Shown: positions 26,284-39,087 of the stretch, piece by piece | Layout: every line of letters starts with the position of its first letter | Numbering within the stretch: the first letter of the stretch is position 1 | Assembly (NCBI RefSeq): GCF_019343105.1 | Contig: NZ_CP073764.1 | Coordinates: 1,302,001-1,366,000 of the forward strand | Length of the DNA: 64,000 nt | Source: Methylovirgula sp. HY1 | Lineage (GTDB): Bacteria > Pseudomonadota > Alphaproteobacteria > Rhizobiales > Beijerinckiaceae | Direction of reading: 5' to 3' | The notes under the pieces: model-generated | What the model was told of the DNA's origin: nothing | Databases searched by the model: none | The model's input: only the letters and a program-made list of their open reading frames with translations | Program-made: the position numbers and the translations under genes

Positions 26284-26882
26284 ATTTTATCTCCCAACTA
26301 AGCCGCTTCGAGCAATCGGCCCGCACCCAACTGCGCGCGCCGCCAGCGGCGATGTAAAAAAAGCCAATTCATAGGCGCGGCAGGGGTTCCCCCGCCGCTG
26401 TTTCTACCAACTCGTCCCTCCGCCGAAACACCATCGCTGCCGAGCAACCGTCTGGCCGCAACCCCCACTTGTGTGAATGGGTCCAGACATCGCAGACTCT
26501 TCGAACGAAGCGCATCGGCCATGACAACGATGGCCTGACGCACAAGCTTGAGAAGGTCCGCGTCCTCATACGCTTGAACGCTTCCAGTCTATACTCAAAG
26601 GCCGATGAACTCTCAATGAATAACCGATAAACCATCGACAAGGACGGAGCGATAAATCGGGCCGTGCAACATTGCCCATTCCGCGTTTCAACGAATTTTA
26701 GGATTTGTGCCGCAGCGATCGCCCGAGAAACTCACTCAAATCCGAGCGGAATTGCACACGCGATCGGAAGACGGAAGGGGACACCGTCACGCCACATGAG
26801 GCGCCATCGCAAGAGCCCGTGCTATGCAAAGGCCATCTTAATCCTGCCGCGCGTCCATCGCCATCATCAAGGAAGCCGCGCT
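26284..26882. other. Intergenic stretch of about 600 bp
   Basis: This separates the His-rich gene (leftward) from the Ntn hydrolase gene (rightward). Short open frames exist on the minus strand (26298-26641), but their composition and lack of a binding site argue against them. The upstream part of the Ntn-hydrolase frame (26664-26882) is open but has no signal peptide or family character. Confidence 0.5.
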
Positions 26883-27977
26883 ATGAAGTCGTCGAAGCTG
26901 ACCGCCCTGCTCCTCTCCACCGCGATGATCGCCGCGCCTATGGTCGACACGGCGATTGCCTGCACGCGAACCCTGTTCGTCGGCGCCGACAATCTTGTTC
27001 TCACGGGACGCAACATGGATTGGGAAGAAGACATGTCTTCCAATCTCTGGGCCTTTCCGGCCGGCATGCAGCGCGACGGCGCGGCTGGATCCAAATCGAT
27101 TCGTTGGACGTCCAAATATGGCAGCGTCATTACATCGAGCTATGAAGTCGGCACGGGCGACGGCATGAACGAGAAGGGATTGGTCGCCAATCTCCTTTAT
27201 CTCGCGGAATCCGATTATGGAAAGCCCGACGACAGCAAACCCTATCTGTCCATTGCCGCATGGGGACAATATGCGCTGGACAATTATGCCACGGTGAACG
27301 AAGCCGTCGAAGCGCTCGCGAAAGAGCCCTTCAACCTCCTGGCGCCAAGCCTGCCCAATGGCGCCAAGGCCGTGCTGCATTTGGCCCTATCGGATGCGTC
27401 CGGGGATTCTGCGATTTTCGAATATGTCGATGGCAAGCTCGTCATCCATCACGGCAAGCAATATCGCGTGATGACGAATTCGCCGGTCTATGATCAGCAG
27501 CTCGCGCTGAACGCCTATTGGAAAAATATCGGCGGCACGGTCTTCCTGCCGGGCACGAGCCGCGCGTCGGATCGCTTCGCCCGCGCATCCTTCTTGCTGA
27601 GCGCGATCCCGACAAAAGCCGATCCGCATTTCATCAAAAGTGTGCCCGATCAATCCTTCACCTATCAAGCGGTGGCGGAAGTCATGAGCGTGCAGCGGGC
27701 CGTCAGCGTGCCTCTCGGCGTCACGACACCGGACCACCCGAACATTGCCTCGACGCTCTGGCGCACGGTGTCGGACCAGAAGCATCTGGTCTATTATTTC
27801 GACTCCGCCACGCGGCCTAATACTTTCTGGGTCTCTTTGGCCAGGCTCGATCTGAAAGCCGGCGCGCCGGTGAAAAAACTCACGATCCAGGACGGCGAAG
27901 TCTTCTCCGGCGAGACGGCCGACCGGTTCAAGCCGGCCAAAGCGTTCAAATTCCTGGCTGCGACACCGAATATTTAG
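26883..27977 (+). CDS. Exported linear-amide C-N hydrolase (choloylglycine/penicillin V acylase family)
   Basis: The product has 364 residues. A signal peptide ends right before the nucleophile: TAIA then CTRTLFVG, with C27 as the predicted N-terminal nucleophile after cleavage (Ntn fold). Supporting motifs are LTGRNMDWEEDMSSNLWAFP, GDGMNEKGLVANLLYLAE, MTNSPVYDQQLALN and RASFLLSAIP. Relatives cleave bile-salt amides, penicillin V or N-acyl homoserine lactones. In an environmental Alphaproteobacterium an acyl-amide or quorum-signal substrate is more likely, but that is inference. AAGGAAG before 26883 supports the start. Confidence 0.9.
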   Translation: MKSSKLTALLLSTAMIAAPMVDTAIACTRTLFVGADNLVLTGRNMDWEEDMSSNLWAFPAGMQRDGAAGSKSIRWTSKYGSVITSSYEVGTGDGMNEKGLVANLLYLAESDYGKPDDSKPYLSIAAWGQYALDNYATVNEAVEALAKEPFNLLAPSLPNGAKAVLHLALSDASGDSAIFEYVDGKLVIHHGKQYRVMTNSPVYDQQLALNAYWKNIGGTVFLPGTSRASDRFARASFLLSAIPTKADPHFIKSVPDQSFTYQAVAEVMSVQRAVSVPLGVTTPDHPNIASTLWRTVSDQKHLVYYFDSATRPNTFWVSLARLDLKAGAPVKKLTIQDGEVFSGETADRFKPAKAFKFLAATPNI

Positions 27978-30536: not shown

Positions 30537-30612
<76 letters not shown>

Positions 30613-30705
30613 TCGATTTCAAAGGCTTAGCGTCAGATTTGATACCCGGATAGCACAGCGAATTTGATCAGGGTAACGCATCGGGTAACAGCCGGCGCTT
30701 TTTAC

Positions 30706-30861
30706 ATGCACCCTACCCCGCCCACCATCGCCCACCTCAAAGGCCATGGCCTCAAGGGCCTCTTCGTCACATGCGCCAACGCGGCGTGCCAGCACTCGAC
30801 GGCTTTCACCTTTGCGGCGCTTGGGCTGCACGGCCTCGATCAGCCCTTGACATATATGTAA
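30706..30861 (+). pseudogene. 5' part of a small zinc-ribbon protein gene, split by the toxin-antitoxin cassette
   Basis: A 51-residue frame with TPPTIAHLKGHGLKGLFVTC, then ANAACQHSTAFTFAALGL. It looks like the first half of a ~75-90 residue family common in Hyphomicrobiales, whose second half has an FVC-x-x-CGGRA zinc knuckle. Here the frame ends in LTYM-stop inside the AT-rich operator of the toxin gene. The missing knuckle is found 740 bp downstream at 31599. The family match is from memory. Confidence 0.65.
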
Positions 30862-30885
30862 CTTACATATATGTAACTTACATAT
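30847..30885 (+). promoter_or_regulatory. Promoter/operator of the toxin-antitoxin pair
   Basis: TTGACA at 30847-30852 is a perfect -35 box. It overlaps a 23-bp palindrome (30851-30873; half-site CATATATGTAA), and a further partial copy TTACATAT follows. Repeated AT-rich palindromes at this position are typical autoregulatory sites bound by the antitoxin or the complex. Confidence 0.65.
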
Positions 30886-30906
30886 CCCGCGCGAGGCCCT
30901 TACTCA

Positions 30907-31269
30907 ATGCATACCGTCTGCGAAACTTCAGCTTTTCAAAGCGCTGCTGAAGAAGCTGGCATGACGCGAGACGAAATCGATAGATTTATCGAGATTGTAG
31001 CGGCGGACCCGGAAGCAGGCGATGTGATGAAGGGCACCGGCGGTTGCCGCAAGGTGCGTTTCGGCGGTCGCGGCAAAGGCAAAAGCGGAGGCTATCGTAT
31101 CGTGACGTTTTTCACTGGCAAAGACCTGCCGGTGTTCTTGCTTACCGTTTTTGGAAAGGGCGAGCAGGCTAATCTGACCAAAGCCGAGCGAAATGCCCTC
31201 GCCGCGCTGACGAAAATCCTTGTTTCAGAGTACCGGAACAAAATTGTAGCCGTAGGAGCCACCCGATGA
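30907..31269 (+). CDS. RelE/HigB-type toxin
   Basis: The product has 120 residues of the RelE/ParE toxin superfamily: MTRDEIDRFIEIVAADPEAG, KGTGGCRKVRFGGRGKGKSG, GYRIVTFFTGKDLPVFLLTV and KGEQANLTKAERNALAAL. The basic GGRGKGKSGGYR stretch and the following strand match mRNA-interferase toxins of the HigB-2/YgjN subgroup. The toxin gene comes first and overlaps the antitoxin by 4 bp (ATGA), the order typical of HigBA. Confidence 0.88.
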   Translation: MHTVCETSAFQSAAEEAGMTRDEIDRFIEIVAADPEAGDVMKGTGGCRKVRFGGRGKGKSGGYRIVTFFTGKDLPVFLLTVFGKGEQANLTKAERNALAALTKILVSEYRNKIVAVGATR

Positions 31270-31577
31270 GCAAGAAAGCGTTCGACAAAATTGCTGCAGG
31301 CCTGAATGAGGCCATCGGAATTGCGCGCGGCGAAATCAAGCCGGCTCGGCTGCACGTTCCTGCGGAGCTGGATATTCGAGCGATCCGAGCGAAAACCGGT
31401 TTGTCTCAAGCGGATTTTGCCTATCAATTCGGCTTTACCGCCGACCAGATCAAAGCGTGGGAGCAAGGCAGGTCGCGTCCGCTCGGAGGCGTGCGCGCCT
31501 ACTTGATGATGATCGATATTGATCACGAAGCCGTTTCGCGCATCTTTGAACAGGGCCGCCAGCACAAGGCTGCTTGA
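31266..31577 (+). CDS. HigA-type antitoxin with XRE helix-turn-helix
   Basis: The product has 103 residues. The N-terminal half (AFDKIAAGLNEAIGIARGEI) probably wraps the toxin. The C-terminal XRE domain (IRAIRAKTGLSQADFAYQFG, FTADQIKAWEQGRSRPLGGV) binds the palindromes upstream of the toxin gene. It pairs with the preceding toxin through an ATGA overlap. Base composition is less GC-rich than neighbouring chromosomal genes, in line with horizontal origin. Confidence 0.9.
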   Translation: MSKKAFDKIAAGLNEAIGIARGEIKPARLHVPAELDIRAIRAKTGLSQADFAYQFGFTADQIKAWEQGRSRPLGGVRAYLMMIDIDHEAVSRIFEQGRQHKAA

Positions 31578-32009: not shown

Positions 32010-32197
32010 GTCGGTATCCTTCACAGTCAAACGGTCTTTGGAAAAGGGCGGGAATGTGGCGCGCGATGGCGCCACGGTTCCCATTGTGTTGATTTCCACT
32101 GAGAGTTGACCCGGCAAAGAGGGATATTTCCACCGAGAATTGACCCATGTTTGAACCCTCCCTGCTTGTTTTTGGCGGGGGCAATGGAGTGATCGAC

Positions 32198-33727
32198 ATG
32201 GCGTTATTGAGCGTGATTAGACGCTGGCATTTTCGAGAGCATCTATCGATCCGAGAAATTTCGCGTCGGACCGGCCTGTCGCGGAACACCGTCCGCAAAT
32301 ATCTGCGTTCGGGCGACGTGGAACCGAAGTTCAAGGTCCCGGAGCGGCCGAGCAAGCTTGACGCCTTCGCCGACCGATTGTCGGCCTGGCTGAAAACGGA
32401 GGCCAACAAGCCGCGCAAGCAGAAGCGCACACTCAAGCAGTTGCATGCCGATCTGACCGGCCTCGGCTATGACGGCTCTTACAATCGAGTTGCGGCCTTC
32501 GCGCGGGATTGGAAAGCTGCGCGACAGAGGGAACTGCAAACGTCGGGTCGCGGGACCTTCGTGCCGCTGTCATTTGAACCGGGCGAAGCATTCCAGTTCG
32601 ATTGGTCCGAGGACTGGGCGATCATCGGCAATGAGCGCACCAAGTTGCAGGTGGCTCATACGAAGCTGAGCTACAGCCGGGCTTTCGTCGTGCGCGCCTA
32701 TCTCCTGCAGACGCATGAGATGCTGTTCGACGCGCACAATCACGCCTTCCGGGCCTTTGGCGGGGTGCCCCGGCGCGGCATCTACGACAACATGAAGACT
32801 GCCATCGACAAGGTCGGACGTGGGAAGGAGCGCGATGTCAACGCGCGCTTCCTGGCAATGGCCAGCCACTATCTGTTTGAACCCGAGTTCTGCAATCCGG
32901 CATCCGGCTGGGAGAAGGGACAGGTTGAGAAGAACGTCCAGGATGCACGTCATAGACTCTGGCAGCCCATCCCACGCTTTGCCTCGCTCGATGCCCTGAA
33001 CGAATGGCTGGAGAACCGCTGCAAGGAGCTCTGGCGGCAGACGTCGCACGGGCGATTGCATGGAACGATCGCTGACATCTGGGCCGAGGAGGCCCCGGCT
33101 CTCATGGCGGTGTCACGCCCTTTCGATGGCTTCGTCGAATACACCAAACGGGTCTCACCGACCTGCCTCATCCATCTGGAGCGCAACCGCTACAGCGTTC
33201 CGGCCTCCCTCGCCAACCGCCCGGTGAGCCTACGTGTTTACCCGGAGAAGATCGTTGTCGCCGCCGAAGGCCAGCTGATCTGCGAGCATCGCCGCATCAT
33301 CGACCGTTCTCATGATGGGCCGGGCCAGACGGTCTATGACTGGCGGCATTATCTGGCTGTCGTTCAGCGCAAGCCTGGCGCGCTTCGCAATGGCGCTCCT
33401 TTTGTCGAGCTGCCGGATGCCTTCAGAATGTTACAACAGCAGCTTCTCAGGAAGCCGGGTGGCGATCGCGAGATGGTCGACATCCTGGCGCTTGTCCTCC
33501 AGCACGACGAGCAGGCTGTGCTCTCGGCCGTCGAGCTGGCCCTGGAGGCAGGCGTTCCGACGAAGACGCATGTGCTGAATCTGCTTCATAGGCTGATCGA
33601 CGGCAAACCCGTCGTCCCACCAACCGTCGATGCGCCTCAGGCTTTGACGCTCACCAAGGAGCCGAAGGCCAATGTCGAACGCTACGACGCCTTGAGAGAA
33701 ACAGCGGAGACGCGCCATGCATCATAA
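32198..33727 (+). CDS. istA: IS21-family transposase IstA
   Basis: The product has 509 residues from the ATG at 32198 (GGAG eight bases upstream; an earlier ATG at 32147 adds 17 residues). The helix-turn-helix [20 protein letters not shown] is followed by an rve-type catalytic core with [19 protein letters not shown] and [10 protein letters not shown], giving the DDE residues. The C-terminal domain contains [17 protein letters not shown]. It appears intact. Confidence 0.95.
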
Positions 33728-34529
33728 TCCTGCAAGCGGTGCCATCGTCATCATGCTCAGAAGCCTCAAGATGCACGGCATGGCCCACGCCGTCAGCGAG
33801 TTGACCGAACAGGGGGCGCCCGCCTTCGAAGCCGCTATCCCGATCCTGTCCCAGCTCGTGAAGGCAGAAACGGCTGAGCGGGAGGTCAGATCGGTGGCCT
33901 ATCAGCTCAAGGCGGCACGGCTCCCCGCCTATCGCGACCTGAATGGCTTCGACTTCTCAAGCAGCGAGATCAACGAAGCGCTCGTGCGCCAGCTCCATCG
34001 CTGCGAGTTCATCGACGCGGCCAACAACATCGTTCTAGTGGGCGGCCCCGGCACAGGAAAAACCCATGTCGCGACCGCCATCGGCGTGCAGGCCATCGAG
34101 CACCACCATAAACGCGTCCGCTTCTTCTCGACCGTCGAACTGGTCAATGCGCTCGATCAAGAAAAGGCGCAAGGCAGATCCGGGCAGATCGCCAATCGCC
34201 TCGTCCACTCAGATCTCGTCGTCCTGGACGAACTGGGCTACCTGCCGTTCAGCGCATCCGGTGGCGCGCTGCTCTTCCATCTCTTGAGCAAGCTCCATGA
34301 GCGCACCAGCGTGATCATCACCACCAATCTCAGCTTCAGCGAATGGGCGAGCGTCTTCGGCGATCCTAAGATGACGACCGCATTGCTCGACCGTCTGACC
34401 CACCACTGCCACATCCTGGAGACAGGAAACGACAGCTTCCGATTCAAAAACAGCTCGGCACACGCGGCCAAAGCAAAGAAGGAGAAAAATAGGAACTTGA
34501 CCATCGCACGAGACCCGAAAGATACATAA
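33717..34529 (+). CDS. istB: IS21-family helper ATPase IstB
   Basis: The product has 270 residues and is a DnaC-like AAA+ ATPase that assists IstA. Walker A is GGPGTGKT (109-116), Walker B is [12 protein letters not shown], and [20 protein letters not shown] is the sensor region. It overlaps the end of istA by 11 bp. It appears intact. Confidence 0.96.
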
Positions 34530-34584
34530 CAGGCGGGTCAGTTCTCAGTGGAAACGCCGGGTCAACTCTCAGTGGAAATCAACA

Positions 34585-35125
34585 CTGGACGGATTGTGTG
34601 AGCACTGCCGCTACCCTCACATGTCAGCGCTGACCACCAACTGTAGCTAAAGTTAGTCTTGGTTAATAATTTGTAAAGCAAGACGTTGAACTTTGGTTAA
34701 CAATCAAGCGCATCCGCCGATCGCTGGCGCCGGCTCGAAACAGCCGCGGTTTCCATTGATCTGTTCGATGCCACGCGGGGCGCTAAGTTAGGCCCGTCAA
34801 AAAGCCGCTGCCGGAGATCCCGCGGCTTGCTGCACCGGATCATCGAAATAATAGATTGATTTGATCCAATGCATAAATTGGACATGAGACATCTCCAGGT
34901 CTTTTGATGCACCATGGATTCGAACGGAATGGGGAAAGTGGAGCTATTTTGTCATTCCGTTCTGGCGCAGCAGGACTGCCGCGCCTTATGTGCAATCACG
35001 TCACACCCCTCTGCTACTGTCTCCCTGGATTTGCAGACGAACGGCATGTCGCGGCTTTCGTTGCATCGTTTCGCGGCTGAACTGCCGACTATGGCCGCAT
35101 GGATCTCGCTCAGAAGGACTTGATC
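34585..35125. other. Intergenic region between the IS21 element and the sulfur cluster
   Basis: 541 bp, AT-rich around 34640-34710 (GGTTAATAATTTGTAAAGC, then GGTTAACAATC). It probably holds the promoter of the sulfur cluster near its right end. A 31-codon frame on the minus strand (34797-34892) was noted, but its ribosome binding site touches the start codon. Confidence 0.5.
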
Positions 35126-35911
35126 ATGACTGAATTCATCCACCGCCGCAGAGCACTCATCAATACTGGCTTGGCCGTTGCCGCTGGCGCGGCAACGCTC
35201 GCGTCGCCTGCGGTCCAGGCGGCGGAAACCAGCATGATACCGACCGGCGCAAAAACCCTGCGCGACTTGACCAAACGGCTGGCCAAGGCGCCACGCCGTC
35301 GCGACTTCAAGACGGTGCCGATGATTCTCGATGATCCCAAACAGTGGGATCACGAAGCGTTGTCGGAGGTCTTGGCCTATCACGGCAATCCGAAGCAGGT
35401 TTATGACAATACGGCGATCGCGTCGCCCTGGCTCAACGTGATGCGCAATGCGCTCAATGCGCAGATCTGGTCATTCAAGCATCCCGACTTTTTGGTCGTG
35501 TCGGCCACCCATGGTTCCGCACATGTTGCTCTTTACGACGAGGCGATGTGGGTGAAATATCAACTCAGCAAGCTGACGGGCGGGAAGTTCAAGACCAACA
35601 CGCTGATCGTCGAGACGAAGGCCGCGTCCAAGGATTCGGCGAAATTCGAGGATCCAGATGGTGTGTTTTCGCCGCACAACAACTCGATCCCCGCTTTGCA
35701 GGAGCGCGGCGTCGTCTTTCTGGCCTGCCACAATGCGATCTGGGAACAGGCTGAAAAGCTTATCAAGACAAATGTAAATCCCGACAAGCTTTCGCATGAG
35801 GCACTGGTCGCGGAACTGACCAATCATTTGATCCCCGGCGCCATTCTGACGCCCGGCATTGTCGCAACGCTGCCCGAATTGCAGCGCGTCGGCTTCGCCT
35901 ACATAAAGTGA
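35126..35911 (+). CDS. Exported DsrE-like protein of the sulfur cluster
   Basis: The product has 261 residues from the ATG at 35126 (AAGGA in front). The N-terminus HRRRALINTGLAVAAGAATL then ASPAVQAAE looks like a Tat-type signal. The mature part has a DsrE/TusD-like fold pattern: FLVVSATHGSAHVALYDEAM, VVFLACHNAIWEQAEKLIK and LIPGAILTPGIVATLPELQR. It has one cysteine only (C201 in FLACHN), at the position where DsrE-type carriers hold a persulfide. Such proteins are normally cytoplasmic; the exported form is unusual. It is the first gene of a four-gene set with an SBP, DoxDA and TauE. Confidence 0.75.
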   Translation: MTEFIHRRRALINTGLAVAAGAATLASPAVQAAETSMIPTGAKTLRDLTKRLAKAPRRRDFKTVPMILDDPKQWDHEALSEVLAYHGNPKQVYDNTAIASPWLNVMRNALNAQIWSFKHPDFLVVSATHGSAHVALYDEAMWVKYQLSKLTGGKFKTNTLIVETKAASKDSAKFEDPDGVFSPHNNSIPALQERGVVFLACHNAIWEQAEKLIKTNVNPDKLSHEALVAELTNHLIPGAILTPGIVATLPELQRVGFAYIK

Positions 35912-35919
35912 GTGTAACG

Positions 35920-36894
35920 ATGCTCAAGTTGTTTCGCTACGTAGCGATGGGTGTCGCGGTCGCGGTTCTGCCGACGATTGCCGCAGCCCAGGGTGGCCAA
36001 GGAAAAGCCAATATCTTCCCGCCCTGGCAAGGCGGCACCAACAATGATGTGGTGAAACGCGGATTCGAATTCACCGTACCGGAGGTCGACGACCTGCCGG
36101 ACTTCCACGGTGATCCTTGCCATGCGAAGCTCGTCCTCTATGTCGGCGGCAATTACTTCTTCGCCATGGCGCCGCTGGTGGCCGAATTCGAGCGCTTGAA
36201 TCCCGAATATAAGGGCAAGCTCTATTGGGAGACGATCCCACCCGGCCTGTTGGTGAAGCAGCTTAAATCCGGTGGCACCATCACTGTCGGCAATATGACT
36301 TGGACGGCGCCCGCGGATGTCTATTTCGCCGGGCTCGCCAAAGTGAAGCAACGGATCGACGAAGGCCTGCTCGTCGGTCCCGCCGTGCCTTATGTGACGA
36401 ATACTCTGACCATCATGGTGCCGAAGGGCAATCCGGCGCATATCACCGGACTGACCGATCTCGGCAAGCCCGGCGTGCGGCTGGTGATGCCGAATCCGGA
36501 ATTCGAAGGCATCGCCCGGCAAATCAAGGCCGCGCTCAAAAAAGCTGGCGGCGCAGCCCTCGCCACGCGGGTCTATGACACCAAAGTCAAGGATGGCAGC
36601 ACGATCCTGACCCATATTCATCATCGGCAGACGCCGCTGTTCCTGATGCAGGGTCGCGCTGACGCGGGCGTCACCTGGCAATCGGAGGCCATGTTCCAGG
36701 AGCAGGCGCACAATCCGATTTCCCATGTCGACATTCCCGATGCTCAAAACAGCACCGCGATCTATGCCGGAGCGGAAGTGAAGAGCGCCAAGCATCCGCG
36801 GGCAGCAAAGGCGTGGCTTTCCTTCATTCGTTCGAAGCCGGCTCTCGCCATTTTCGAACGCTATGGATTCAAGGCTTATAAGCAAGCAAAGTGA
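35920..36894 (+). CDS. Periplasmic substrate-binding protein (ModA/SBP-like) in the sulfur cluster
   Basis: The product has 324 residues. The signal peptide is YVAMGVAVAVLPTIAAAQ. The two-lobe binding-protein pattern is seen in AKLVLYVGGNYFFAMAPLVA, NTLTIMVPKGNPAHITGLTD, GRADAGVTWQSEAMFQEQAH and AKAWLSFIRSKPALAIFERY. No permease or ATPase gene is nearby, so it may serve the DoxDA enzyme, a distant ABC system or act as a scavenging/chaperone protein. GTG at 35908 overlapping the previous stop is an alternative start. The ligand is unknown; an oxyanion such as thiosulfate, sulfate or tungstate is a reasonable guess. Confidence 0.8.
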   Translation: MLKLFRYVAMGVAVAVLPTIAAAQGGQGKANIFPPWQGGTNNDVVKRGFEFTVPEVDDLPDFHGDPCHAKLVLYVGGNYFFAMAPLVAEFERLNPEYKGKLYWETIPPGLLVKQLKSGGTITVGNMTWTAPADVYFAGLAKVKQRIDEGLLVGPAVPYVTNTLTIMVPKGNPAHITGLTDLGKPGVRLVMPNPEFEGIARQIKAALKKAGGAALATRVYDTKVKDGSTILTHIHHRQTPLFLMQGRADAGVTWQSEAMFQEQAHNPISHVDIPDAQNSTAIYAGAEVKSAKHPRAAKAWLSFIRSKPALAIFERYGFKAYKQAK

Positions 36895-36925
36895 CGGACC
36901 CGCCAAGGACGTCGAGGAGGTTATG

Positions 36926-38026
36926 ATGACCGCATTGACTGCAGAACGGATGACGAAGGGTGCCTATCCGGCGTCCCTCGGCGCGCAGGACTGGCGCACC
37001 GCCGCCATCGCGATGCTGTCGGTGCGCGTCATTCAAGGATTCATCTATTGGGGCGGCGGCTCACGCCGCTTCATTTATGCACCGGCCAAGCTCGATCCGA
37101 CGCGACATCAATGGATGGCGAACAAATTCCAGACCGCCATGCCGGGCGCCCTGTTCGGCTTGGATCACGTCATCGCCTATATGCTGCAGCACTTCTGGTT
37201 GCTCTATGCAGGCGTCATCATATTCAGCGCCATCGAGCTGATCATAGGGATCGCGCTGATGGTCGGGCTGATGACGCGTGCCGCGGCCCTGATCTCCATC
37301 GGCCTTTCGATCGCGCTGATGTTGATGTTCGGCTGGCAAGGCGCCACGTGTATCGACGAATGGACCATGGCCGCCTGCAATCTCGCTATGGGCGCCACAC
37401 TCATGCTGGGCGGCAGCGGTGCCTATTCGCTCGACAATGTCCTGCTGCGCCGCAATCCGGCGCTGGCGGAGCGGCCGTGGTTCCGCTGGGGCGGCGGCAG
37501 CCTCCCCCTGCCGATGACAGAATCAGGATTCCGCAAGCTCGGCCTTGCCGTGCTTGCCTTCGTCCTCATCTTCGATATCGGCACCTATAGCTATTACCGC
37601 GGTTCGGTCGTTACTCCGTTCCACGGCGGCCCGGTCAGCCCCACCAAGCACCATCTTACGCTTTCCAAAGTGGCGCTTTTGAGCGACGGCAGCGTCCGCT
37701 TCCACGTCTATCTCGACGCCGGCACACCGGAAGCACCAGCGCACGTCATGAAAGCGGAACTCCTCGGCGCGGATGGAAAGACCCTGGCCATTTGGAACAC
37801 CGAGGCACTCACCAAACTGCCGGCTTCGGCGATCGCCAATGATTTCGCATACAACAAGTTCAAGGCTAGCGATTATGGGCTGGTCGCGACAATGGGCGCC
37901 ATGGCCACCGTGACCTTGCCTCCCGTCGCGAACGCGCAGCCGAAAGGCGCCACGACACTCCGCCTGACCGATGTCAGCGGCCACCACTTTATCGGCCGGC
38001 TGACCGTCGCGGCCGGAGCATCCTGA
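36926..38026 (+). CDS. doxDA: Thiosulfate:quinone oxidoreductase, DoxD-DoxA fusion
   Basis: The product has 366 residues with GAGGAGG before the start. The N-terminal ~190 residues are the membrane DoxD part with several helices (VRVIQGFIYWGGGSRRFIYA, LLYAGVIIFSAIELIIGIAL, RAAALISIGLSIALMLMFGW, CNLAMGATLMLGGSGAYSLD). The C-terminal part, after one more helix (LGLAVLAFVLIFDIGTYSYY), is the periplasmic DoxA domain (VVTPFHGGPVSPTKHHLTLS, GSVRFHVYLDAGTPEAPAHV). In Acidianus the two are separate subunits that oxidise thiosulfate to tetrathionate and reduce quinone. Fused forms are known in some acidophilic bacteria. Activity here is inferred. Confidence 0.85.
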   Translation: MTALTAERMTKGAYPASLGAQDWRTAAIAMLSVRVIQGFIYWGGGSRRFIYAPAKLDPTRHQWMANKFQTAMPGALFGLDHVIAYMLQHFWLLYAGVIIFSAIELIIGIALMVGLMTRAAALISIGLSIALMLMFGWQGATCIDEWTMAACNLAMGATLMLGGSGAYSLDNVLLRRNPALAERPWFRWGGGSLPLPMTESGFRKLGLAVLAFVLIFDIGTYSYYRGSVVTPFHGGPVSPTKHHLTLSKVALLSDGSVRFHVYLDAGTPEAPAHVMKAELLGADGKTLAIWNTEALTKLPASAIANDFAYNKFKASDYGLVATMGAMATVTLPPVANAQPKGATTLRLTDVSGHHFIGRLTVAAGAS

Positions 38027-38289
38027 GCGCGCCCGATGCTGCGGAGCATGGATCTCTTCGAGAAACATTGCTCCGCCATCGTCGAGCGTGCATCAGTGCC
38101 GCGGCATCTCATGCTGCTAGCATCGCGCGACACCGCTTCAGCGGCCACTTCGCCAAGCTGCCAGGCTTTTTTTAACTGGACGGCACTGGCGCCCTGAAAC
38201 CGGCCGCAGCAATTTCTCACGTGATAGCGTCATAATCGCGTATAAGCGCGACGACCGTTGCCGACGCGATTTCTCAGCACAGGCCTTCA

Positions 38290-39087
38290 ATGACATTTTT
38301 GAGCGATATCCTAAGTCTGCTCTCAGGTTTGTCGATTGGCTTCGTGCTGAGCCTCATCGGTGGTGGAGGTTCGGTGCTCGCGACGCCACTGCTCGTCTAT
38401 GTCGTCGGCGTGAAATCGCCGCATGTCGCCATCGGGACCGGCGCGATTGCGGTCGCGGTCAATGCCTTTGCCAATCTGATCGGTCACGCCCGCGCGGGTC
38501 ACGTCAAATGGAACTGCGCACTCATTTTTGCCGCGTCTGGCTTCATCGGCGCGGGGATAGGCTCGACGCTCGGCAAGCATTTCGATGGCCAGAAGCTGCT
38601 GCTGCTGTTCGGCATCGTGATGATCGTCGTAGCGGCACAGATGTTCGTCAATCGCTCCGCGGAAGGCAACGCCAACTTGCGCTTGACCGCCGAGACCGCG
38701 CGGCAATTGGTGCCGCCGCTGATCGGCTATGGTTTTGCCGTCGGCGTCCTATCGGGCTTCTTTGGGATCGGCGGCGGCTTTCTCGTCGTACCGGGTCTTG
38801 TCGCCGCGACGCGTATGTCGCTGATCATGGCCGTCGGCTCGTCCCTCGTATCGGTGACCGTATTCGGCGCGACGACGGCCGCGAATTACGCCATTTCCGG
38901 TCTCGTCGATTGGCGTCTCGTCGCCTTGTTCCTCGCCGGCGGAATTGTTGGTGGGCTCGTCGGTGGCGTCCTGGCGACAAAGCTGTCGAAGGAGCATCGG
39001 GCGCTTTCACTTATCTTCGCGGTGGTCGTCGCCGTCGTCGGCTTGTATGTCGTCTACCGCGGCGTTCGCAATCTGCTCGGCACGTGA
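38290..39087 (+). CDS. TauE/SafE-family (TSUP) anion exporter
   Basis: The product has 265 residues with about eight helices in two related halves, each with a GGG/GIGGG motif (LSLIGGGGSVLATPLLVYVV and LSGFFGIGGGFLVVPGLVAA). Members export sulfite, sulfoacetate or thiosulfate-derived anions, or import thiosulfate-type anions. The place downstream of doxDA suggests handling of sulfite or a related anion. A 263-bp gap separates the two genes, so it could have its own promoter. Confidence 0.9.
   Translation: MTFLSDILSLLSGLSIGFVLSLIGGGGSVLATPLLVYVVGVKSPHVAIGTGAIAVAVNAFANLIGHARAGHVKWNCALIFAASGFIGAGIGSTLGKHFDGQKLLLLFGIVMIVVAAQMFVNRSAEGNANLRLTAETARQLVPPLIGYGFAVGVLSGFFGIGGGFLVVPGLVAATRMSLIMAVGSSLVSVTVFGATTAANYAISGLVDWRLVALFLAGGIVGGLVGGVLATKLSKEHRALSLIFAVVVAVVGLYVVYRGVRNLLGT

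What the first reader, a model, noticed from the sequence alone, without database searches (positions are those of the whole stretch)
35126..39087. Sulfur-oxidation cluster: exported DsrE-like protein, orphan SBP, DoxDA fusion, TauE exporter
Four adjacent genes on the same strand combine parts that are rarely described together. A DoxD-DoxA fusion would oxidise thiosulfate to tetrathionate and pass electrons to quinone. Two periplasmic proteins of unknown role precede it (34 bp or less between genes), and a TSUP anion exporter follows. The cluster lies directly next to an IS21 element and a toxin-antitoxin island, so it may be an acquired trait. In a Beijerinckiaceae-like genome (including possible methylotrophs) this would link sulfur oxidation to the quinone pool.
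Basis: partly seen in the sequence, partly recalled or inferred. Interest (0 to 1): 0.8.

Follow-up and report, generated by a model that had tools for sequence, protein, structure and literature searches.

The report
Thiosulfate-oxidation operon in a methanotroph
Four neighbouring genes look like a borrowed kit for turning thiosulfate into tetrathionate and feeding the electrons to the respiratory chain; the kit is already known from acid-loving sulfur bacteria, but here it sits in a likely methane oxidiser, and its relatives suggest which protein takes the electrons.

Summary
The four genes are real and correctly placed. The exported "DsrE-like" protein is not of unknown role: it scores 406 bits (cut-off 300) on NCBIfam's thiosulfate dehydrogenase family (TSD, AFE_0042 type), and its predicted structure has a DsrE/DsrF fold with one invariant cysteine, C201. 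The order tsd-sbp-doxDA is published as the sulfur-induced AFE_0042-0044 genes of Acidithiobacillus ferrooxidans (PMC2754497, PMC6335251). This is a new member of a known kind.

Added here: the genome also encodes soluble methane monooxygenase and soxYZAB; none of the ten other genomes searched from its genus has TSD or DoxDA; DoxDA groups with Acidisphaera-like acidophiles. Across 79 TSD loci the neighbour is DoxDA (23) or the haem thiosulfate dehydrogenase TsdA (31), never both; 25 have neither. In two planctomycete MAGs the SBP is fused to TsdA. A 2024 review still marks an electron acceptor in this pathway "?" and TSD's is not known; DoxDA (quinone) and TsdBA (cytochrome) become interchangeable candidates. 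A phylogeny-controlled test is too small to decide (4 pairs, p 0.25). Catalysis, SBP ligand and electron hand-off are inferred.

The parts
35126..35911 (+). tsd: exported thiosulfate dehydrogenase (AFE_0042 type), DsrE/DsrF fold, single cysteine C201
   Evidence: NF052225 406 bits; fold; C201 in 102 of 102 aligned rows, some from overlapping loci
35920..36894 (+). sbp: periplasmic solute-binding protein of the sulfate/molybdate type; no ABC permease or ATPase among the annotated neighbours
   Evidence: PF13531 181 bits; AFE_0043 counterpart; single copy in genome
36923..38026 (+). doxDA: DoxD-DoxA fusion, thiosulfate:quinone oxidoreductase
   Evidence: PF04173 and PF07680 over cut-off; only copy in genome; model has helices then a C-terminal strand domain, pLDDT 68.7
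38290..39087 (+). tauE: TauE/SafE-family anion transporter, 263 bp downstream; membership of the module uncertain
   Evidence: PF01925 169 bits; a TauE gene within 6 kb of TSD in 8 of 79 loci, directly upstream in 5
32086..34585 (+). IS21-family element (istA 32147-33727, istB 33717-34529), neighbour of the module

Best explanation
The cluster is an acquired tsd-sbp-doxDA(-tauE) module of the tetrathionate-intermediate (S4I) pathway. TSD, a periplasmic DsrE-fold protein, oxidises thiosulfate to tetrathionate through its single invariant cysteine. The orphan SBP captures the sulfur oxyanion for the module rather than for an ABC importer. DoxDA is the quinone-reducing end and probably TSD's electron acceptor. 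TauE moves a sulfur oxyanion across the membrane. In other genomes the diheme enzyme TsdA, often with a TsdB-like cytochrome, takes DoxDA's place, giving a cytochrome-linked version. Shown: gene identities, order, predicted fold, invariant cysteine, either/or pattern, absence from the sampled congeners. Inferred: activity in this organism, Cys201 catalysis, SBP ligand, electron hand-off, TauE substrate.
For: Families. Same order in A. ferrooxidans, higher on sulfur than iron (PMC2754497, passages; PMC6335251, passages). 79 loci: SBP 59, DoxDA 23, TsdA 31, both 0, neither 25. SBP-TsdA fusion in L039 and L041. At least 8 switches on the TSD tree. In the GTDB family 14 of 16 TSD genomes have a strong TsdA match against 57 of 381 others; the window's genome is one of the two without, and the one with DoxDA. 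DsrE fold; C201, H202, H234 invariant. Purified TSD reduced neither ubiquinone nor horse cytochrome c (PMC6335251), so a partner is needed.
Against: doxDA occurs without TSD in A. caldus and A. thiooxidans (PMC6335251), and TsdA makes tetrathionate by itself (PMC4423706, abstract in the listing), so TSD may be redundant rather than coupled. Of 58 loci with full flanks, 12 have neither partner and 15 no SBP. The phylogeny-controlled test has 4 usable pairs, p 0.25. DoxD 86.9 bits against an equivalog cut-off of 300. Many family genomes have TsdA without TSD (57 of 381), among them congener G092. TauE is 263 bp away. GC content of the cluster does not stand out.
Confidence: 0.62

Rival explanations
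1. Parallel enzymes: TSD and DoxDA (or TsdA) each oxidise thiosulfate on their own and share a locus only because they are induced together; TSD has another, unlinked electron acceptor.
For: DoxDA occurs without TSD (PMC6335251); TsdA is complete alone (PMC4423706, abstract); 12 of 58 full-flank loci have TSD with neither partner.
Against: Does not explain why DoxDA and TsdA never occur together in 79 loci, nor the SBP-TsdA fusion; though shared descent may explain part of it.
Confidence: 0.25
2. TSD is mainly a thiosulfate or sulfane carrier or substrate-delivery protein, like other DsrE-fold sulfur carriers; the ferricyanide activity of the homologue is a side reaction, and DoxDA or TsdA is the true dehydrogenase.
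For: DsrE fold and a single invariant cysteine; neighbours that are thiosulfate oxidisers themselves; no redox cofactor motif recognised in the sequence.
Against: The A. ferrooxidans homologue was identified through its tetrathionate-forming activity (PMC6335251, passages); loci without either partner exist.
Confidence: 0.2
3. The module is not a recent acquisition but an old trait lost from most of the genus.
For: TSD is scattered through the family in 8 of 43 genera; GC content does not stand out; congeners sampled are partly incomplete (60-99%).
Against: A full-length DoxDA match occurs in 1 of 397 family genomes, and DoxDA groups with L020, L032 and L048 at 97/95.
Confidence: 0.2

Closest known systems
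AFE_0041-0046 thiosulfate-quinone oxidoreductase complex operon of Acidithiobacillus ferrooxidans
   Same: Same order of TSD, periplasmic SBP and doxDA
   Different: There a C4-dicarboxylate/malic acid transport gene (AFE_0041) precedes and AFE_0045-0046 follow; here IS21 precedes and tauE follows. Host here is a likely methanotroph.
tsd-sbp-doxDA loci of Acidisphaera rubrifaciens (L048), Acidomonas methanolica (L047) and Acetobacter/Komagataeibacter (L050-L055)
   Same: Same three genes in order; L048 identities 72% TSD, 75% SBP, 71% DoxDA
   Different: In L048 tauE (54%) is directly upstream of tsd instead of downstream of doxDA; in L047 and L050-L055 none within 6 kb
tsd-sbp-tsdB-tsdA loci of Methylobacterium and relatives (e.g. 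L012)
   Same: TSD and SBP in the same order
   Different: Diheme TsdA (PDB matches 5lo9, 4wqc, 4v2k) and a TsdB-like diheme cytochrome in place of DoxDA
Thiosulfate:quinone oxidoreductase DoxD + DoxA of Acidianus ambivalens
   Same: DoxD and DoxA domains; electrons from thiosulfate to quinone (PMC6335251)
   Different: Two subunits there, one fused chain here; below the NCBIfam DoxD equivalog cut-off

Membership tests
Thiosulfate dehydrogenase TSD (NF052225) | Score above the curated cut-off | tested here: met
   406.4 bits against 300, residues 7-261 of 261
Thiosulfate dehydrogenase TSD (NF052225) | Exported (Tat signal) | tested here: inconclusive
   Twin-arginine-like motif and hydrophobic stretch seen by eye; A. 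ferrooxidans AFE_0042 annotated as Tat protein; no signal predictor run
Thiosulfate dehydrogenase TSD (NF052225) | Oxidises thiosulfate to tetrathionate | not testable with these tools
   Reported for the A. ferrooxidans homologue (PMC6335251, passages)
DsrE/DsrF-like superfamily | DsrE/DsrF fold | tested here: met
DsrE/DsrF-like superfamily | Pfam DsrE (PF02635) match | tested here: not met
   0 Pfam families up to E 1; so DsrE-like by fold only
Thiosulfate:quinone oxidoreductase (DoxDA) | DoxD and DoxA domains | tested here: met
   PF04173 103 bits (22.7), PF07680 51.4 bits (27)
NCBIfam TQO large subunit DoxD equivalog (NF041179) | Score above the curated cut-off | tested here: not met
   86.9 bits against 300
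Thiosulfate:quinone oxidoreductase (DoxDA) | Thiosulfate-dependent quinone reduction | not testable with these tools
   No assay; no solved relative by sequence up to E 1
TauE/SafE (PF01925) | Pfam match over the cut-off | tested here: met
   168.8 bits against 32.6
Molybdate, sulfate or thiosulfate ABC binding proteins (TIGR01256, TIGR00971, NF008106) | Score above the curated cut-off | tested here: not met
   38.7/62.5, 34.6/155.5, 34.8/308 bits; the broader SBP_bac_11 is met

The most novel reading that the evidence does not exclude
TSD plus SBP form a shared periplasmic front end for thiosulfate oxidation that plugs into interchangeable output modules: DoxDA for the quinone pool or TsdBA for the cytochrome chain. 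TSD would be a haem-free, DsrE-fold, cysteine-based oxidase of thiosulfate whose missing electron acceptor is its neighbour.
Probability: 0.3. Interest if true: 0.65.

Novelty: new member of a known kind. Interest (0 to 1): 0.45.

Why it matters
What takes the electrons from TSD is not known: the purified enzyme reduced neither ubiquinone nor horse cytochrome c (PMC6335251), and a 2024 review's pathway figure carries a '?' for 'electron acceptor' in its legend (PMC10859504; the figure itself is not held). The either/or association with DoxDA or TsdBA and the SBP-TsdA fusion name concrete partners to test. In this host the module would feed thiosulfate electrons into the quinone pool of a likely methane oxidiser.

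Tried and rejected
Rejected: an undescribed gene combination (order published). Rejected: IS21 adjacency as proof of acquisition (12 full-length identical copies). Rejected: apparent merging of TSD and SBP in L003 and L020 in my gene picker; the two hits lie in different frames (coordinates). Led nowhere: naming the genome through its second contig in the plasmid collection (best matches transposase and recombinase genes); a clean empty site in congeners (left flank not syntenic); promoter and terminator scan (within shuffles); class-wide sampling (TSD in 2 of 385 genomes) and the family of G640 (1 of 5 for each gene), too sparse for co-occurrence. DoxDA structure: mean pLDDT 68.7, with C143 in a stretch under 50; too weak to place an active site, not searched further. 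Foldseek pdb search: machine busy; pdb_via answered. Not looked for: tetrathionate hydrolase, dsrAB, sHdr, and soxX or soxCD outside the one sox stretch fetched.

Results against the reading: 25 of 79 loci have neither partner (12 of 58 with full flanks), 20 of 79 no SBP within 6 kb (some cut by contig ends); the phylogeny-controlled test is not significant; TSD tree support for the window's place is weak (82). The 79 loci are not 79 genomes (several genomes hold two or three), and six or more of the 16 family TSD genomes carry the same sequence as a named locus (identical rows), so the two samples overlap.

Full report
The window carries four + strand genes at the stated place: 35126-35911, 35920-36894, 36923-38026 and 38290-39087, with gaps of 8, 28 and 263 bp. 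Pfam gives SBP_bac_11, DoxD plus DoxA, and TauE for genes 2 to 4 and nothing for gene 1. NCBIfam places gene 1 in NF052225, thiosulfate dehydrogenase, at 406 bits against a cut-off of 300. The neighbouring IS21 has perfect 30-bp ends, and one RelE/HTH pair lies before it.

The arrangement is not new. In A. ferrooxidans AFE_0042 (Tat protein), AFE_0043 (solute-binding protein) and AFE_0044 (doxDA) are listed in one 'thiosulfate-quinone oxidoreductase complex operon' with ratios towards sulfur-grown cells (PMC2754497, four passages). [quoted passage not shown] I did not see the primary TSD paper (not held).

Relatives. A scan of genome contigs with gene 1 gave 79 loci (close relatives only; several genomes hold more than one). 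Within 6 kb of TSD, SBP lies in 59 of 79 (on the other strand in 4), DoxDA in 23 (one, L018, partial), TsdA in 31 (22 of them with a TsdB-like cytochrome), DoxDA and TsdA together in 0, neither in 25. SBP accompanies 19 of the 23 DoxDA loci and 28 of the 31 TsdA loci. In the 58 loci with at least 2.5 kb upstream and 4.5 kb downstream: DoxDA 19, TsdA 27, both 0, neither 12, SBP 43. The hypergeometric chance of no overlap is 6e-7 (79) or 1.5e-7 (58), uncorrected for kinship. On the TSD tree the label changes at least 8 times (50 labelled rows after dropping 5 identical Acetobacter rows; 200 shuffles gave 10-19, mean 15.5): the swap is repeated but also partly inherited. The kinship-controlled test has 4 pairs on well-supported branches; TsdA goes the same way as DoxDA in 0, the other way in 2.4 on average, p 0.25. 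The TsdA identity rests on matches of the L012 protein to solved TsdA and TsdBA. In two planctomycete MAGs (L039, L041), likely one event, SBP and TsdA are one protein.

Own family. Of 397 genomes, 16 have TSD. DoxDA gave hits in 27, but only the window's genome has a full match; the best of the others is a partial match at 1.2e-6. By coordinates TsdA lies within 4 kb of TSD in 12 of the 16; SBP is in the fetched flank in 12 of 16. Counted by hand, strong TsdA matches (E < 1e-30) occur in 71 of 397 genomes: 14 of 16 with TSD and 57 of 381 without (Fisher 1e-9, uncorrected for kinship). The two TSD genomes without are the window's own and G221. The window genome's best match (1.4e-6) falls inside its soxA. 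One TSD (G103) is split over two frames. None of the 10 other genomes of the genus has TSD or DoxDA at E 0.001; they are 60-99% complete.

Origin. DoxDA groups with L020, L032 and L048 (Acidisphaera) at 97/95. TSD falls near the same rows with weak support (82); the nearest SBP rows are L020 and L048, without a supported group. Congeners carry the orthologous RND pump (77-78% identity) without the cluster beside it in 3 of the 4 stretches fetched; the fourth was too short to tell. GC content does not stand out. Acquisition is the better reading, not proven.

Host. The genome has mmoY and mmoB over NCBIfam cut-offs and an mmoX that matches solved methane monooxygenase alpha chains at over 1,000 bits, and soxY, soxZ, soxA, soxB and DsrE2 over cut-offs. 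This fits the description of Methylovirgula thiovorans HY1, an sMMO-only methanotroph that grows on thiosulfate and tetrathionate (PMC10205796, passages), but identity was not established and the HY1 paper was not held. Whether that paper already reports this cluster I cannot say.

Reading. TSD oxidises thiosulfate at Cys201, the SBP concentrates the oxyanion, and DoxDA passes electrons to quinone; elsewhere TsdBA passes them to cytochrome c. Family, order, predicted fold, invariant cysteine and either/or pattern are shown; catalysis, ligand, hand-off and TauE substrate are inferred. DoxDA's model is weak (pLDDT 68.7) but shows helices followed by a strand-rich C-terminal part, as expected of DoxD plus DoxA; C143 is conserved in 23 of 23 rows that cover it. 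My searches of the held library showed no title or abstract opening about a DsrE fold for TSD or the DoxDA/TsdA alternation; most subscription journals are not held and I read passages of five papers.

Noticed in passing
window 32086-34585: IS21-family element with perfect 30-bp terminal repeats; 12 full-length identical copies in the genome including this one and one on the second contig, so it was active recently.
   Followed up: partly
window 30537-31577: tRNA-Lys followed by one RelE-like toxin and HTH antitoxin pair.
   Followed up: no
window 26664-27977: Exported choloylglycine-hydrolase-family amidase (PF02275, 138 bits).
   Followed up: no
L139 8051-17976 (G000:C1:58001-77500): soxYZAB, an exported DsrE-family protein and DsrE2 in one stretch; I recognised no soxCD there by eye.
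   Followed up: partly
L140 3922-9415 (G000:C1:3012000-3026000): Soluble methane monooxygenase genes: mmoX, mmoY, mmoB matched; neighbouring ORFs look like mmoZ and mmoC by eye.
   Followed up: partly
L039 8734-10635, L041 3304-5130: Natural fusion of the solute-binding protein with diheme TsdA in two planctomycete MAGs.
   Followed up: partly
L018, L024, L030, L031, L060, L069: TSD loci with a SorA-like sulfite dehydrogenase gene nearby (L030 protein 553 bits, cut-off 600).
   Followed up: no
L019, L023, L026, L037: TSD beside a 671-731 aa cytochrome with five CxxCH motifs; in L037 its C-terminal part is SoxA/TsdA-like.
   Followed up: no
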